Below are positions 22,325-61,934 of a stretch of 64,000 nucleotides of DNA, piece after piece (position 1 is the first letter of the stretch; each line of letters starts with the position of its first letter). Location: assembly GCF_000621125.1 (NCBI RefSeq), contig NZ_JHZC01000012.1, positions 1 to 64,000 of the forward strand, written 5' to 3'. The notes beneath the pieces are model-generated. The model was not told where the DNA came from, did no database searches, and saw nothing but the letters and a program-made list of their open reading frames with translations. Made by a program: the position numbers and the translations under genes. The DNA is from Maribacter antarcticus DSM 21422 (GTDB taxonomy: Bacteria > Bacteroidota > Bacteroidia > Flavobacteriales > Flavobacteriaceae).

Positions 22325-22765
22325 ATGAAGAAAATTATTTTTATCGCATTCGTAACATTTGTATGTACGTTTGAAATGAACGCGCAACAGTTTAAAGTAA
22401 TTACAAGTGTGGAATCTATTGTTTCCAGTGGTCTAGGCCGTTCAAGAATTATATCTGGTAATGAAGAAAAAGATTTTACAGCGTTTACTTCAACTCAAAC
22501 AGAAGAAGACAATACCCGTAATAAATCAAAAAGAAGTGAGATTCGAGTAAAAGATTTTGACGAAACCAAGTTATTGAACTTCTTTAATATTGCTGGTATT
22601 CGTTTTCAAAATATTGCCGCAAATGATGCTATAATTAGCTCTAAAATTAATGCCATGGTTGCCGAAGGCTGGGAGCTGGCTTTTGTAACTAGTGCTGTTG
22701 AAAGTGATAGTGGTAAAGGAGATGGCTCTGGTATTTTTATTACCAGATATATTTTCAAAAAGTAA
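22325..22765 (+). CDS. Small exported DUF4177-like protein
   Basis: 146 residues from the ATG at 22325. An upstream in-frame ATG at 22187 would bury the signal peptide (1-20, ending N-A-Q), so I reject it. The C-terminal half has A-E-G-W-E-L-A-F-V-T, the core motif of DUF4177-like small domains. It is alone on the plus strand and ends at a bidirectional terminator shared with the aromatic operon. Function unknown. Confidence 0.8.
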   Translation: MKKIIFIAFVTFVCTFEMNAQQFKVITSVESIVSSGLGRSRIISGNEEKDFTAFTSTQTEEDNTRNKSKRSEIRVKDFDETKLLNFFNIAGIRFQNIAANDAIISSKINAMVAEGWELAFVTSAVESDSGKGDGSGIFITRYIFKK

Positions 22766-22842
22766 CCTGAACTAGCGTTATCCTTACTACTGATTTTGAT
22801 AGCAGCTGTACTAGCGAAGGCTATTTCAGTACTAAACAAAAT

Positions 22843-22879
22843 TAAAAAAAATCCCGACTTTTTAAGTCGGGATTTTTTA
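22843..22879. terminator. Bidirectional intrinsic terminator
   Basis: ATCCCGACTT (22851-22860) and AAGTCGGGAT (22864-22873) form a perfect 10-bp stem flanked by an A-run on the left and a T-run on the right, so it works for both the DUF4177-like gene (plus) and the aromatic operon (minus). Confidence 0.93.
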
Positions 22880-22880
22880 T

Positions 22881-23963
22881 TTAAGCCTTTACAATTTTCT
22901 CTTGGTGATTAATAGATTCTTGGTGAATGGCCTTAAACATGCGCAAGACAAACTCCTCGCTAAGCCCTTTCGATTCTCCTTCTAAAATCATCTTACCCAA
23001 AATTTCGTTCCAGCGATTAGATTGAAGTACAGCAACATTCCTAGACTTTTTTAAACCACCGATTCCGTCAGAAACTTTCATTCGTCTCCCGAGCGTTTCA
23101 ATCAATTGATTATCAAGTACATCTATCTGTGCCCTAAGGTTGCTCAATTGCTTGTTATATTCTGCTTCTGGATCAGATTCCTTTCTGATTTTCAAATCCC
23201 TCATAATTTGCACTAAAGTATCAGGCGTCACTTGCTGTGCAGCATCACTCCAAGCATTATCAGGGTCAAAGTGAGTTTCAATCATCAAGCCATCAAAATT
23301 CAAGTCCAATGCTGTTTGCGAAACATCAAAAATCATATCGCGTTTACCCGTAATATGAGAAGGGTCATTAATCAATGGCAAATCCGGAAACTTGTTCTGG
23401 AATTCAATAGCCAATTGCCACTCTGGAATATTTCTATACTTCGTTTTTTCATAGGTTGAAAAACCTCTGTGAATAGCACCTAACTTTTTAATACCCGCTG
23501 TGTGTAATCTTTCGATACCTCCTAACCACAAAGCTAAATCTGGATTTACAGGGTTCTTAACCAAAACAATCTTGTCTGTTCCTTTCAAAGCATCTGCTAA
23601 CTCTTGCATTATAAAAGGGCTCACAGTAGACCGCGCACCTATCCATAATAAATCTACATCATGCTCCAAAGCCAATTCTACGTGCGCACGGTTCGCAACT
23701 TCCGTAGCCGTTTTTAGTCCAGTTTCTGCCTTCACTTTCTGAAGCCATTTAAGGCCTAGGGCACCAACGCCTTCAAAATTCCCAGGACGCGTTCTTGGTT
23801 TCCAAATACCTGCTCGGTAATAATTAACATCGGTATCTTTTAATTCGTGCGCTATTCGCAATACCTGTTCCTCGGTTTCAGCACTACATGGCCCTGCTAT
23901 TACTAGTGGATGATCTAAACCCATATCGTCCAACCATGTTCTCATTTCTTTTGTATTCTCCAT
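22881..23963 (-). CDS. Bifunctional DAHP synthase / chorismate mutase
   Basis: 360 residues. The N-terminal 255 or so form a type I-beta DAHP synthase (A-G-P-C-S-A-E, K-P-R-T-R-P, D-P-S-H-x-x-G, I-E-x-H) making 3-deoxy-arabino-heptulosonate-7-phosphate from PEP and erythrose-4-phosphate. The C-terminal part (about 265-360) is an AroQ-class chorismate mutase with L-R-x-Q-I-D-x-L-D. The order DAHPS then CM is the reverse of Bacillus AroA but usual in Bacteroidota; the mutase domain commonly acts as the feedback sensor. It is the last gene of the pheA-led operon, so entry and branch-point enzymes of the pathway share one attenuator. Confidence 0.95.
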   Translation of the reverse strand: MENTKEMRTWLDDMGLDHPLVIAGPCSAETEEQVLRIAHELKDTDVNYYRAGIWKPRTRPGNFEGVGALGLKWLQKVKAETGLKTATEVANRAHVELALEHDVDLLWIGARSTVSPFIMQELADALKGTDKIVLVKNPVNPDLALWLGGIERLHTAGIKKLGAIHRGFSTYEKTKYRNIPEWQLAIEFQNKFPDLPLINDPSHITGKRDMIFDVSQTALDLNFDGLMIETHFDPDNAWSDAAQQVTPDTLVQIMRDLKIRKESDPEAEYNKQLSNLRAQIDVLDNQLIETLGRRMKVSDGIGGLKKSRNVAVLQSNRWNEILGKMILEGESKGLSEEFVLRMFKAIHQESINHQEKIVKA

Positions 23964-25005: not shown

Positions 25006-26154
25006 CTACTCAAATCTCTTTATCGCTTCCTTTATTTTTTCTTCGGTAACACAGAGTGAAAACCTAATAAACCCTTCTCCATTACTTCCAAAAATAGTAC
25101 CTGGTGCAATAAAAATATCCTTTTCATATAATAACTCATCTATAAATTCCTCTGAGGACTTTGATGCTATGGGTAGCTTAGCCCAGATGAACATACCTGC
25201 TGCATTAAGGTCATATGTGGCGCCAATTGAATCTACCAATTGGAACATAAGTGCCCTTCTTTTACTGTATGTACGGTTCAACTCTTGGAACCATCCATCC
25301 CCACTTTTCAAAGCGGTAATTGCTCCCTTCTGCACGCCGTAAAACATACCGGAGTCCATATTGCTCTTTATCTTTAGTACAGCGGTAATATGCTCGGCAT
25401 TCCCAGAGACCATCCCAACGCGCCAACCAGCCATATTAAACGTCTTACTCAAGGAATTTAATTCAAGTGCAACCTCTTTGGCACCAGGTACCTGCAAAAT
25501 ACTGGTAGGGGTATCGTTCAACACAAAACTGTAGGGATTATCATTTACCAATAATATTTGATGCCTTTTTGCAAAAGTGACGAGCTCATCCATTTTTTCA
25601 ATGGTAATACGCGCTCCTGTAGGCATATTAGGATAACTAATCCACATTAATTTCACCTTACTGAGATTCATTTGGCCCAACTTATCCATATCTGGCAACC
25701 AGTTGTTTTCCTCGGTAAGATCATACATGACCGGTTCTGCCCCTACCAAATTGGTTACCGATGTATAGGTAGGATAACCAGGATTTGGAATGAGTACCTG
25801 ATCGCCAGCATTCAAAAAGGCCATGCTTATATGCATTATGCCTTCCTTTGAGCCCATTAAGGGCAAAATCTCAGATTGTGCTTCTAACAACACATTAAAC
25901 TTTTTTTTATAAAAAGAGGCAAAGGCAGACCTGAGTTCTGGCAAACCTTGATAGCTTTGATATTGATGTGCACCAGGCTCCAAAATAGCCTGTTGCATAC
26001 TAGCAATGACTTCCATTGATGGTGCCAAGTCTGGACTACCGATACCCATATTAATAATGTCTTTACCTTCTCCCATGAGTACCCGAACCTCTCGTAACTT
26101 TTTGGAAAAGTAGTATTCTTGTATCGTTTCTAAACGTTTTGCCGTTTGTATCAT
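25006..26154 (-). CDS. PLP-dependent aminotransferase (class I/II), probably aromatic
   Basis: 382 residues. Fold-type I aminotransferase with N-P-G-Y-P (cofactor), Y-P-N-M-P-T-G, and the PLP-lysine motif S-L-S-K-T-F-N-M-A-G-W-R-V-G. It starts inside the end of pheA (ATGA overlap) and precedes tyrA, so it most likely transaminates phenylpyruvate and 4-hydroxyphenylpyruvate (or prephenate). Exact substrate is inferred from context. Confidence 0.9.
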   Translation of the reverse strand: MIQTAKRLETIQEYYFSKKLREVRVLMGEGKDIINMGIGSPDLAPSMEVIASMQQAILEPGAHQYQSYQGLPELRSAFASFYKKKFNVLLEAQSEILPLMGSKEGIMHISMAFLNAGDQVLIPNPGYPTYTSVTNLVGAEPVMYDLTEENNWLPDMDKLGQMNLSKVKLMWISYPNMPTGARITIEKMDELVTFAKRHQILLVNDNPYSFVLNDTPTSILQVPGAKEVALELNSLSKTFNMAGWRVGMVSGNAEHITAVLKIKSNMDSGMFYGVQKGAITALKSGDGWFQELNRTYSKRRALMFQLVDSIGATYDLNAAGMFIWAKLPIASKSSEEFIDELLYEKDIFIAPGTIFGSNGEGFIRFSLCVTEEKIKEAIKRFE

Positions 26155-26978
26155 ACCATGGCTTTTTTATATTCTCCTAAAACTTTAAATTCTTCTGTCA
26201 TGATATCCAATAAGGCTTTTAACTTACTAAAATCTTCATAATCGTTAAACGTAATATCCACAAAGAAGGCATATTTCCAAGGTGTCTCTATCACAGGGAG
26301 CGACTGTATTTTAGTTAGGTTCATTCTGCAATCGCTCATCACATTAAGCACAGCCGCCAAACTACCGCGTTTGTGGTTAGCAATGAACCTTACAGAAGCC
26401 TTATTTATTTCAATCTCGGGAAGCTCTTTATTTCTTGTCTTTACAATGATAAATCGTGTGGAGTTATTCTTAATGGTCTGTATATTGTCCGCTACGATGT
26501 CCAACCCATATAATTGGGCTGCTACTTTAGGTGCAATCGCTGCCACATGCTTTAAATTTTGCGCTTGGATACGTTTAGCTGTTTCCGCAGTATCCACATC
26601 TTCCACCAAACGTATATGAGGGAAACCTTTAAAAAACTCCTTGCATTGTAGCAAAGCCATGGGATGCGAACTAACCTCAGTAATATCGGAAAGTTGTTGC
26701 CCTTCCATCACCATTAAATGGTGATGAATGTTTAGGTAGTACTCCCCTATTATGTGTAAGTCGTTGTGAAATAACAAAGCGTAATTCGGGATAATAGATC
26801 CAGCAATGGAGTTTTCAATCGCCATAACCCCTTTATCGGCATCTTTCTCCAAGAGATTTTGAACCAAGGCATCAAATGAAAGGCACTCTGCCAAATCTAT
26901 TTCTTCACCAAAGTAATCCAATGCCACTTGATGATGATTAGACCCCTTAATTCCCTGTATGGCTATCTTTAAACCCAT
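26151..26978 (-). CDS. pheA: Prephenate dehydratase
   Basis: 275 residues, no chorismate mutase domain. It converts prephenate to phenylpyruvate. The catalytic T-R-F motif (N-N-S-T-R-F-I-I-V) is present and a C-terminal ACT domain starts near 197 (H-K-R-G-S-L-A-A-V). The E-S-R-P phenylalanine-binding motif of the enterobacterial ACT domain is replaced by I-Q-S-L-P, so feedback sensitivity may differ. It is first gene of the operon, 63 bases after the attenuator stem. Confidence 0.95.
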   Translation of the reverse strand: MGLKIAIQGIKGSNHHQVALDYFGEEIDLAECLSFDALVQNLLEKDADKGVMAIENSIAGSIIPNYALLFHNDLHIIGEYYLNIHHHLMVMEGQQLSDITEVSSHPMALLQCKEFFKGFPHIRLVEDVDTAETAKRIQAQNLKHVAAIAPKVAAQLYGLDIVADNIQTIKNNSTRFIIVKTRNKELPEIEINKASVRFIANHKRGSLAAVLNVMSDCRMNLTKIQSLPVIETPWKYAFFVDITFNDYEDFSKLKALLDIMTEEFKVLGEYKKAMV

Positions 26979-27040: not shown

Positions 27041-27070
27041 AAAAAAAAAGCCCCGTTGGTAACGGGACTT
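27041..27070 (-). terminator. Attenuator terminator of the pheA operon
   Basis: On the minus strand AAGTCCCGTT (27070-27061), a three-base loop (27060-27058) and AACGGGGCTT (27057-27048) form a 10-bp stem with one G-U pair, followed by a run of U (27047-27041). The first arm is also exactly complementary to AACGGGACT at 27111-27103 inside the leader peptide gene, so the stem can be replaced by an antiterminator. Terminator forms when Phe/Tyr-tRNA is plentiful. Confidence 0.9.
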
Positions 27071-27095
27071 CTATTGTTCATATGTTTAAAATATA

Positions 27096-27167
27096 CTACA
27101 ACAGTCCCGTTCCTCTTTTAAAAAAGAAGTAGAAGTAGAAACTGTTCCAAAAATATTGCTTTGTCAT
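27096..27167 (-). CDS. Phe/Tyr-rich leader peptide of the pheA operon
   Basis: A 23-residue peptide of which 11 are aromatic: Y-F-W, then F-Y-F-Y-F-F-F, before K-R-G-T-G-L-L and a TAG stop. The start is preceded by an A-rich stretch, as usual here. The last codons (GGA ACG GGA CTG) contain the sequence that pairs with the terminator's first arm. A ribosome stalled in the aromatic run leaves this sequence free to pair and blocks terminator formation; a ribosome reaching the stop codon covers it. The layout is that of classical transcription attenuation, reacting to phenylalanine (7 codons) and tyrosine (3 codons). Confidence 0.9.
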   Translation of the reverse strand: MTKQYFWNSFYFYFFFKRGTGLL

Positions 27168-27612
27168 TTTTTTCTTAACTGTTGCTAATGTACTAATTAT
27201 ATTTAATACCTATAATTTATACTAATTTTTTTTTGAATTTCGAGTTTTAGAATAATTTTATGAAGAATATGATTTAAAAATGACGTGTTTAATGTGAATT
27301 AGTTAAAAATATAAAGCGAGTCCTAACTTCGCCAATAAAGCACCTCCAGCTAACGCTTCTTTTCGTTTAGACTTTTCCTAGTGTTTGTTTATATCCACGT
27401 TCTTCTCCGTTAAAATATTAAGCTATCTGTTTATCATCTTTATACTATCCCGTTTTCCAAAATCCCAGAGAGGAAGTTATCTCTTGTGTAATTACAATAA
27501 AAAAGAATAATAGAACGACAGAAAAAAGCATGGTGTTGTAATTGATACGCTTTTACAGATTGTAGTTACTTCACTGCAGCTAAGTTAATTCTTGAATTGA
27601 TAAAACATATAG
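27168..27612. other. Intergenic region holding the promoter of the pheA leader
   Basis: About 445 AT-rich bases between the leader peptide and the M20 hydrolase gene. It must contain the promoter for the attenuator-controlled operon. TACATTAG about 20-30 bases upstream of the leader ATG is one mismatch from the flavobacterial -7 element TAnnTTTG, a weak candidate only. No gene seen. Confidence 0.4.
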
Positions 27613-38759: not shown

Positions 38760-38819
38760 TTCATAAAATCGTATGTATCAAGTAAGGAAAAGGTAGGACG
38801 AAGTATCCTCTTTTAGCTG

Positions 38820-38935
38820 GTTATCTATTCCCGTTTTAGCAGGGGTAGAATGTAGCACCTTCTTTATCTAAATTAATTTAGCAAAAGGGTTGCTAAGGCT
38901 TCAATGGGTCTAATCCCTCTGCCTTTCTTGATAAC
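38820..38935 (-). ncRNA. SAM-I (S-box) riboswitch upstream of split metH and metF
   Basis: Read on the minus strand the element opens with GTTATCAAGA (38935) and closes with GATAAC (38820), forming P1. Conserved core blocks are present in order: GAGGGATTAGACCC, TGAAGCC, TAGCAACCC, AAGGTGCTACATTC. It shares long identity with the element at 61439-61576. The expression platform is less clear than in the second copy: a weak stem at about 38798-38818 and the hairpin at 38745-38759 follow. Confidence 0.93.
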
Positions 38936-39091
38936 AATTTCAGTTTATTAATGAACTCATAACAAAGAAACACCACAGTTGCCTCTTAACCAAATTAAAA
39001 CAGCTATTTCTTACCGTAGTTTTAGCTCAAAAACCCTCTGTTATGCTTTAAGATTAGCGGGTTAATAGCTAACACAAATAGAGGCAATGTT

Positions 39092-61430: not shown

Positions 61431-61438
61431 GGTTTTTC

Positions 61439-61576
61439 GTTATCTATACTCCAGTCCACTAAAACGTAGACACTGAAACGGGTTCAGCTTGAAGATAGAA
61501 TGTAGCACCTTCTTTGCCTGAAACAAAGGGTTGCTAAGGTTTCAAAGGGTCTAATCCCTCCACCTTTCTTGATAAC
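61439..61576 (-). ncRNA. SAM-I (S-box) riboswitch upstream of the methionine operon
   Basis: Minus strand: GTTATCAAGAAAGGTGGAGG opens at 61576, followed by GGATTAGACCC, TTTGAAACC, TTAGCAACCC, AAGGTGCTACATTC, and GATAAC closing P1 at 61439. All main S-box consensus blocks are present in order. The 3' arm is longer than in the copy at 38820-38935 because of an extended stem. A terminator follows immediately. Confidence 0.95.
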
Positions 61577-61934
61577 TATTCAATAAATGTTTGAACTTTG
61601 AAAGTACAAATTAAGCTCAGAAACTTTTAAAAACCTAATGATTTTTAAAAATTTCACAAAATCCTAGTATTTTGATGGGATAATATATCGCTTACATGCT
61701 TTCCACCTTTACCACATTATTTGTTTGAGCTATGCAACAGCCTAATACACTAAATATTTTTCTTTCCTTCTAAAAAAAAAGAATCGAAGAAAATCTACAA
61801 CACATAAAACAAGGACGCTTTGTTAGAAACAGCGTAATATGAAGCCACAAAATTCGCTTTGAGTTCGTATTTGTTGCGAATGAATTCCGCTATTCCGATA
61901 ACCTGATTTATCTTTGAATTCATAAATATACACT
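61577..61934. other. Divergent promoter region between the metY riboswitch and the DUF808 gene
   Basis: About 360 AT-rich bases. The minus strand must carry the methionine operon promoter; a TTAATTTG box lies about 30-45 bases ahead of the aptamer, and the same box precedes the other aptamer, a weak -7 candidate. The plus strand carries the DUF808 promoter. No gene seen. Confidence 0.35.

What the first reader, a model, noticed from the sequence alone, without database searches (positions are those of the whole stretch)
27041..27167. Complete Phe/Tyr attenuator with leader peptide in a Bacteroidota aromatic operon
A 23-residue leader with an aromatic run, an antiterminator sequence at its end (27111-27103) exactly complementary to the first arm of a U-tailed terminator (27070-27041), and the pheA-aminotransferase-tyrA-DAHPS/CM operon right behind it. 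All parts of ribosome-mediated attenuation are present. One attenuator would control both Phe and Tyr branches plus entry to the shikimate pathway. Such leaders are well known in Gammaproteobacteria, less so in flavobacteria.
Basis: partly seen in the sequence, partly recalled or inferred. Interest (0 to 1): 0.75.

Follow-up and report, generated by a model that had tools for sequence, protein, structure and literature searches.

The report
Phe/Tyr leader-peptide attenuator in a flavobacterium
Upstream of its phenylalanine/tyrosine genes this marine bacterium carries a tiny aromatic-rich peptide gene and an RNA switch that most likely stops transcription when these amino acids are plentiful; the mechanism is a textbook one and the element is kept in many related bacteria.

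Summary
A 23-codon leader ORF (27167-27096, minus strand) ends in AACGGGACT, the exact complement of the 5' arm of a U-tailed terminator; the pheA-aminotransferase-tyrA-DAHPS/CM operon follows. An aromatic leader (7 or more aromatics in 12 residues) lies upstream of 186 of the first 230 pheA homologues examined. At 8 or more: 88 of 90 family members, 1 of 900 shuffles, 1 of 90 antisense. All 181 distinct leaders have a hairpin plus T tract, against 56 of 905 shuffles. Both alternative stems carry double changes (26 and 39 cells) that none of 500 shuffles reached. In the window's clade a segment 1 can sequester the antiterminator, with matching codon bias; this is not clear in all leaders. The element is in 35 of 36 genomes of the genus; 22 of 42 genomes of other orders of the class have such a leader. 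A conserved structured element before pheA, and leader-peptide attenuation before amino-acid operons, were reported in flavobacteria in 2021 (PMC9723704). The mechanism is inferred from sequence; no expression data.

The parts
27185..27192 (-). Promoter -7-like element TACATTAG (fits the TAnnTTTG type of Bacteroidota, recalled); implies a 5' UTR of about 12 nt
   Evidence: Inferred from sequence and from the upstream composition of 181 leaders aligned on ATG, with T/A favoured at -26/-25 and TTAG at -22 to -19. No transcription start mapped.
27096..27167 (-). Leader peptide ORF MTKQYFWNSFYFYFFFKRGTGLL, stop TAG; no Shine-Dalgarno, A at -3
   Evidence: Sequence; leader in 186 of the first 230 upstream regions examined; A at -3 in 76% and at -6 in 64% of 181 leaders
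27120..27155 (-). Regulatory codon run (Y5-F16)
   Evidence: Sequence; shuffled and antisense controls
27138..27146 (-). Segment 1 (protector) AACAGTTTC, pairs fully (with G-U) with GGGACTGTT 27108-27100
   Evidence: Fold; codon bias; not general
27103..27111 (-). Segment 2 (antiterminator) AACGGGACT inside the leader ORF
   Evidence: Exact complement of segment 3; covariation
27061..27069 (-). Segment 3, 5' arm of terminator AGTCCCGTT
   Evidence: covariation with both partners
27041..27057 (-). Segment 4, 3' arm AACGGGGCT (27057-27049), and U tract to 27041
   Evidence: covariation
26151..26978 (-). pheA, prephenate dehydratase
   Evidence: PF00800, E 3.7e-58
25006..26154 (-). class I/II aminotransferase, overlaps pheA by 4 nt
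   Evidence: PF00155; a homologue was found in 108 of 108 loci longer than 2500 bases among L001-L030 and L091-L170
24084..24947 (-). tyrA, prephenate dehydrogenase
   Evidence: PF02153 + PF20463
22881..23963 (-). DAHP synthase / chorismate mutase fusion
   Evidence: PF00793 + PF01817
22846..22878 (-). Terminator-like hairpin that would end the operon
   Evidence: Pattern scan (6 terminator-like sites found in the region, 3.4 expected)

Best explanation
It is a ribosome-mediated transcription attenuator. Transcription starts just upstream of the leader ORF, and a ribosome begins the leader without a Shine-Dalgarno sequence. If charged tRNA-Phe or tRNA-Tyr (and perhaps tRNA-Trp) is scarce, the ribosome stalls in the aromatic run. 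It then covers segment 1 but leaves segment 2 free just ahead of its leading edge. Segment 2 pairs with segment 3, the terminator cannot form, and the pheA-aminotransferase-tyrA-DAHPS/CM operon is transcribed. If both are plentiful, the ribosome runs to the stop codon, covers segment 2, and the 3:4 hairpin plus U tract ends transcription at about 27041. If the leader is not translated, 1:2 pairing would also permit termination. Shown here: parts, conservation, covariation, spacing. Inferred: transcription start, translation of the leader, stalling, termination, amino acid response.
For: Leader with at least 7 aromatics in 12 residues upstream of 186 of the first 230 pheA homologues, 181 distinct; 181 of 181 with a hairpin plus T tract, against 56 of 905 dinucleotide shuffles. 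Controls at 8 or more: sense 88 of 90, shuffled 1 of 900, antisense 1 of 90. Antiterminator pairing on 59 sequences: 85.5% of cells paired, 26 cells changed on both sides, covariation score 0.321, each with 0 of 500 shuffles reaching it. Terminator: 98.3% paired, 39 cells changed on both sides, 0 of 500. Antiterminator region and own arm pair better than with shuffled regions (88% of 181 at p 0.02 or below, 50 shuffles each; 3 above 0.1) and than with other species' arms (mean -11.9 against -9.5 kcal/mol, sd 0.15, 100 permutations). The antiterminator starts 7-14 nt after the last aromatic codon in 176 of 181 leaders, while the stop codon's end ranges from 11 nt before to 24 nt after its end. 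This is expected if a ribosome stalled in the run must just clear it (footprint recalled). In distant members aromatic content is kept but the peptide sequence is not, which fits codon sensing. Energies: 1:2 plus 3:4 is the predicted fold of the whole leader (-30.8); with segment 1 left out the antiterminator form is predicted (-19.9), against -15.1 for the terminator alone.
Against: No transcript, ribosome-profiling or reporter data were available. In one search two of five measures are not exceptional: pairs with a change on both sides (6; 129 of 500 shuffles reach it) and further pair types (14; 71 of 500). The shuffles do not correct for relatedness; the slid-column control does, but favours a structure derived from these sequences. 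L076 has no leader within 600 nt. L151 and L159 have only weak leaders, 6 aromatics. L208 and L212, in the same class, have none within 450 nt. Of 26 further class genomes only 8 reach the threshold, and in two of these (L241, L254) no hairpin was found. Segment 1 pairing is clade-limited: over all 181 leaders it is barely better than synonymous nulls (-6.7 against -6.1).
Confidence: 0.93

Rival explanations
1. The leader is a nascent-chain arrest peptide that senses free phenylalanine or tyrosine (TnaC-like) rather than tRNA charging; the alternative RNA stems are the same.
For: Among close relatives the peptide itself is highly conserved (YFWNGFYFYFFFKRGTGLL), including non-aromatic residues.
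Against: Part of that conservation is at the RNA level: before F10 the codons are mostly AAC and xGT whether the residue is Gly or Arg, and the end of the peptide is the antiterminator. In other orders mainly aromatic content is left. The position of the stop codon is free.
Confidence: 0.04
2. The terminator/antiterminator pair is driven by a ligand-binding RNA or an RNA-binding protein; the ORF is incidental.
For: Terminator and antiterminator alone could be switched by a protein.
Against: No Rfam family reaches its gathering score here; the best weak match is Phe_leader (25.3 bits). Aromatic-rich ORF in 88 of 90 relatives against 1 of 900 shuffles; narrow spacing from the last aromatic codon.
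Confidence: 0.02
3. Constitutive partial terminator with a chance aromatic ORF, no regulation.
For: No expression data.
Against: Covariation of both mutually exclusive stems and conservation across genera.
Confidence: 0.01

Closest known systems
Structured 5' element upstream of pheA in Flavobacterium psychrophilum and other Flavobacteriaceae (2021, PMC9723704; passages seen)
   Same: Same gene, same family of organisms; the paper reports leader-peptide attenuation clues before amino-acid operons and names the pheA and hisG elements among those present in other genera and without Rfam hits
   Different: The passages seen give no leader sequence, alternative stems, covariation or class-wide distribution; whether its supplementary table calls the pheA element an attenuator was not seen
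Phe_leader, RF01859 (pheA attenuator of Gammaproteobacteria; E. coli leader recalled as Phe only)
   Same: Leader peptide, antiterminator and U-tailed terminator in front of pheA (recalled); whole-length but sub-threshold match over the leader (25.3 bits, gathering 55)
   Different: Not a member by score; mixed Phe+Tyr run, with one Trp in 132 of 181 leaders; here a four-gene operon with tyrA and DAHPS/CM; no Shine-Dalgarno
Bacteroid-trp, RF01692 (listed as Bacteroidetes, cis-regulatory, in Table 1 of PMC2864571; passages seen)
   Same: Same phylum; Rfam describes it as a tryptophan peptide leader RNA
   Different: Different amino acid; only 20.3 bits here, gathering 49

Membership tests
Ribosome-mediated transcription attenuators (as a mechanism class) | Short leader ORF rich in codons for the operon's product | tested here: met
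   10 of 23 residues aromatic; 88 of 90 relatives against 1 of 900 shuffles
Ribosome-mediated transcription attenuators (as a mechanism class) | Mutually exclusive antiterminator and U-tailed terminator | tested here: met
   Exact 9-nt complement; covariation of both stems; shuffle control
Ribosome-mediated transcription attenuators (as a mechanism class) | Biosynthetic operon of the sensed amino acids downstream | tested here: met
   Pfam
Ribosome-mediated transcription attenuators (as a mechanism class) | Protector pairing 1:2 for termination without translation | tested here: inconclusive
   Present in the window and its clade (9 of 9 pairs in 56 of 117 leaders with the motif); not clear across all 181
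Ribosome-mediated transcription attenuators (as a mechanism class) | Read-through rises on amino acid starvation | not testable with these tools
   Needs expression experiments
Rfam RF01859 Phe_leader | Score at or above gathering (55 bits) | tested here: not met
   25.3 bits; no gathering-level match at the site
Rfam RF01692 Bacteroid-trp | Score at or above gathering (49 bits) | tested here: not met
   20.3 bits
Flavobacteriaceae pheA 5' element of PMC9723704 | Homology to the F. psychrophilum element | not tested
   No supplementary look-ups were allowed and no named F. psychrophilum locus was fetched; same gene and family make identity likely (inference)

The most novel reading that the evidence does not exclude
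One mixed Phe/Tyr(/Trp) attenuator, with a 1:2/2:3/3:4 switch at least in one clade, is an ancestral and widely retained control of aromatic synthesis across the class Bacteroidia. Because these bacteria lack Shine-Dalgarno initiation, its conserved ribosome-length spacing would show that a ribosome closely follows RNA polymerase from the first codons of a transcript in this phylum. In one related genome (G639) two such attenuators stand in series.
Probability: 0.55. Interest if true: 0.58.

Novelty: new member of a known kind. Interest (0 to 1): 0.4.

Why it matters
Ribosome-mediated attenuation works only if translation keeps pace with transcription (established, recalled). Bacteroidota start translation without Shine-Dalgarno sequences (abstract of PMC6847099), and among the titles listed by two searches none is a study of transcription-translation coupling in this phylum. 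A conserved attenuator with covariation evidence offers a ready-made reporter for that question. It also gives a single likely control point for Phe, Tyr and shikimate entry in a large group of bacteria, and a family that could be added to Rfam.

Tried and rejected
Second copies of the element: the covariance model's weaker second hits (E 8e-5 to 5e-4) were read for G588, G286, G631 and G595 and look like ordinary terminators without a dense aromatic leader; those of G609, G616 and G601 were not read. In the window the model's further hits are weak (best 26.4 bits at 22737-22881 plus strand, E 0.0033) and were not examined beyond noting that they overlap terminator-like hairpins near 22850. 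Universal protector pairing: tested over all 181 leaders against a synonymous-codon null and found weak; kept only for the clade with the N-x-F motif. Arrest peptide, riboswitch and chance ORF: see rivals. An early scan left minus-strand loci unreversed and was replaced.

Searches for print. Apart from PMC9723704 (passages) and a remark on possible leader peptides in Bacteroides (PMC7366714, passages), no listed title describes such an attenuator in Bacteroidota; most subscription papers are not held. Lopatovskaya et al. 2010 on attenuation across bacteria was seen only as a reference entry, not read, and may hold relevant predictions.

Full report
What is there. On the minus strand a 23-codon ORF begins at 27167, MTKQYFWNSFYFYFFFKRGTGLL, stop at 27098-27096. 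Its end holds AACGGGACT (27111-27103). Downstream, AGTCCCGTT (27069-27061) pairs with AACGGGGCT (27057-27049), followed by T up to 27041. pheA starts at 26978, then an aminotransferase, tyrA and a DAHP synthase/chorismate mutase fusion (Pfam). A terminator-like hairpin at 22878-22846 would close the operon. No Rfam family reaches its gathering score at the site.

Organism. The closest named relative by PheA is 91% identical, from an uncultured Maribacter, so the window is Maribacter-like.

Conservation in the family. pheA was found in 268 of 299 genomes. I examined 90 upstream regions, taken from the 93 best matches (G291, G230 and G226 were passed over). A leader was found in 88, and in one more (L032) farther upstream; L076 has none within 600 nt. 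Nine further family members drawn in another search all have one (L217-L225). The rest of the family was not read. Of 80 named loci 74 reach at least 7 aromatics in 12 residues. Of the other six, three (L157, L161, L162) have a leader farther upstream, L151 and L159 have weak ones (6), and L126 has only 155 nt of upstream sequence. Of 60 wider loci 24 have a leader. Together 186 of 230, 181 distinct; some genomes occur in two sets, which is why distinct sequences are counted.

Chance. The densest 12-residue window has at least 8 aromatics in 88 of 90 real upstream regions, 1 of 900 shuffled (single-base shuffles) and 1 of 90 antisense regions; at 7 or more the controls give 12 of 900 and 4 of 90. 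A hairpin plus T tract was found in 181 of 181 leaders and in 56 of 905 dinucleotide shuffles of the same regions; one shuffle scored as high as its original and none had also an equally good antiterminator.

Covariation. On 59 diverse sequences (alignment A1, picked from the 181 at below 80% similarity, regions over 110 nt left out), the antiterminator stem has 26 cells changed on both sides and the terminator stem 39; no shuffle of 500 reached either number, and sliding the partner columns by 1-3 did worse on pairing and covariation score. For the antiterminator two of five measures are not exceptional: pairs with a double change (129 of 500 shuffles reach it) and further pair types (71 of 500). 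The triples change together: CGGGACT/AGTCCCG/CGGGACT, TGAGACT/AGTCTCG/CGAGGCT, TAGGATT/AATCCTG/CAGGATT, CGAGGCT/AGCCTCG/CGAGGCT. Some rows look misaligned by a base at the antiterminator (for example ACGAGAC), so 85.5% pairing there is probably a low estimate. Permuting arms among species weakens the pairing from -11.9 to -9.5 kcal/mol.

Geometry. The antiterminator begins 7-14 nt after the last aromatic codon in 176 of 181 leaders and 9-11 nt in 127. The stop codon ends anywhere from 11 nt before to 24 nt after the antiterminator's end. The search region began at the run end, which bounds the lower side. A ribosome with the last aromatic codon in its A site reaches about 9 nt beyond it (recalled), so a stall in the run leaves the antiterminator free or nearly so, and in this window a ribosome at the stop codon covers it.

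Segment 1. In the window AACAGTTTC (27146-27138) pairs fully with GGGACTGTT (27108-27100), and the whole leader is predicted to fold as 1:2 plus 3:4 (-30.8 kcal/mol). In 117 leaders with the N-x-F motif, the x codon is GGT in 60 of 70 Gly (128 of 508 in the first codons of pheA), CGT in 15 of 21 Arg (7 of 85), and AGT in 5 and AGC in 7 of 12 Ser (75 of 343 for the two); 14 leaders have Val, Thr, Leu or Ala. The preceding Asn is AAC in 91 of 102 (115 of 226). So AAC-xG, mostly with T third (80 of 103 Gly, Arg and Ser), is kept while the amino acid changes. Nine of nine pairs form in 56 of 117, mean 7.9 against 7.35 for synonymous nulls, none of 200 nulls reaching it. Over all 181 leaders the effect is weak (-6.7 against -6.1 kcal/mol). 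Relatedness is not corrected for.

Initiation. Position -3 is A in 76% and -6 is A in 64% of 181 leaders, with no G-rich stretch upstream. This agrees with the A-3 preference described for F. johnsoniae (abstract).

Codons. The 181 leaders hold 1047 Phe, 603 Tyr and 132 Trp; none lacks Phe or Tyr, and 132 have a Trp. This suggests a joint Phe/Tyr sensor with a possible Trp input (inference).

Distribution. A covariance model (R1, from 27 of the 53 candidate sequences) finds one strong copy in 35 of 36 genomes of the genus, own included; the miss (G592) is 83% complete. That the copy lies before pheA was checked by coordinates only for the own genome, G075, G286 and the family member G001. It also finds the element in 5 of 23 genomes of other families of the order; all five were read and lie before pheA, that of G631 with a weak leader of 5 aromatics. 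Of 42 pheA-bearing genomes of other orders of the class, 22 have a leader: 14 of 16 and 8 of 26 (a 27th, G550, was not fetched; L250 had under 300 nt of upstream sequence). Of those 8, six have a hairpin; five of the other 18 have 5-6 aromatics plus a hairpin. Two genomes of the order with another PheA type have none, and outside the class 1 of 33 has one (L227).

Other leaders in this genome. Upstream of hisG lies MQNRTIHHHFHTYA, and upstream of a chorismate-binding enzyme (probably trpE) MRKTNNIWWWNNLRQHS; upstream of ilvD one ORF has a VIII run (MYYCFMKVYKNRINRVIIISDTE). None of these was tested further. The starts of two of the three homoserine dehydrogenase genes lay outside the stretches read.

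Known or new. PMC9723704 (2021; passages) reports 'strong clues' for leader-peptide attenuation before amino-acid operons and lists the pheA element among structured 5' elements present in other Flavobacteriaceae genera without Rfam hits. Rfam has Bacteroid-trp. The window is therefore a new member of a known kind. To the extent of the passages seen, this work adds the explicit switch, its covariation, the segment 1 constraint, the spacing rule and the spread through the class.

Limits. The mechanism beyond sequence is inference; no expression data were read for this element. 

Noticed in passing
L266 (G639:C25), leaders at 170-242 and 307-385: Two leader-plus-terminator units stand head to tail upstream of pheA (MNNLVSTFRFFGFFFFRKEGAMS and MNQNTQQNFSFFGFFFFKWKSEAVD), which would be attenuators in series.
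   Followed up: partly
L231, 155 nt upstream of the first ATG of the hisG frame: His-rich leader peptide MQNRTIHHHFHTYA upstream of hisG in the same genome.
   Followed up: no
L233, 234 nt upstream of the first ATG of a chorismate-binding enzyme: Trp-rich leader peptide MRKTNNIWWWNNLRQHS, probably a trp operon attenuator.
   Followed up: no
L236, 331 nt upstream of the first ATG of ilvD: Short ORF MYYCFMKVYKNRINRVIIISDTE with a Val-Ile-Ile-Ile run, a possible branched-chain leader.
   Followed up: no
window 38818-38937 and 61437-61578, minus strand: Two SAM riboswitches (RF00162, 75.6 and 71.2 bits).
   Followed up: no
L076, upstream of pheA: The family member without a leader within 600 nt has instead repeated near-identical short ORFs (MEFKLVKRSFYKFEERNKIN and variants), perhaps a repeat that displaced or replaced the attenuator.
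   Followed up: partly
class-wide sample: Only 45 of 169 genomes drawn from the class had a prephenate dehydratase domain match, suggesting loss or a different enzyme in many lineages.
   Followed up: no
window 22844-22900, minus strand: The hairpin that would end the operon (TCCCGACTT/AAGTCGGGA) resembles the attenuator's terminator and is picked up weakly by its model (20.5 bits).
   Followed up: no
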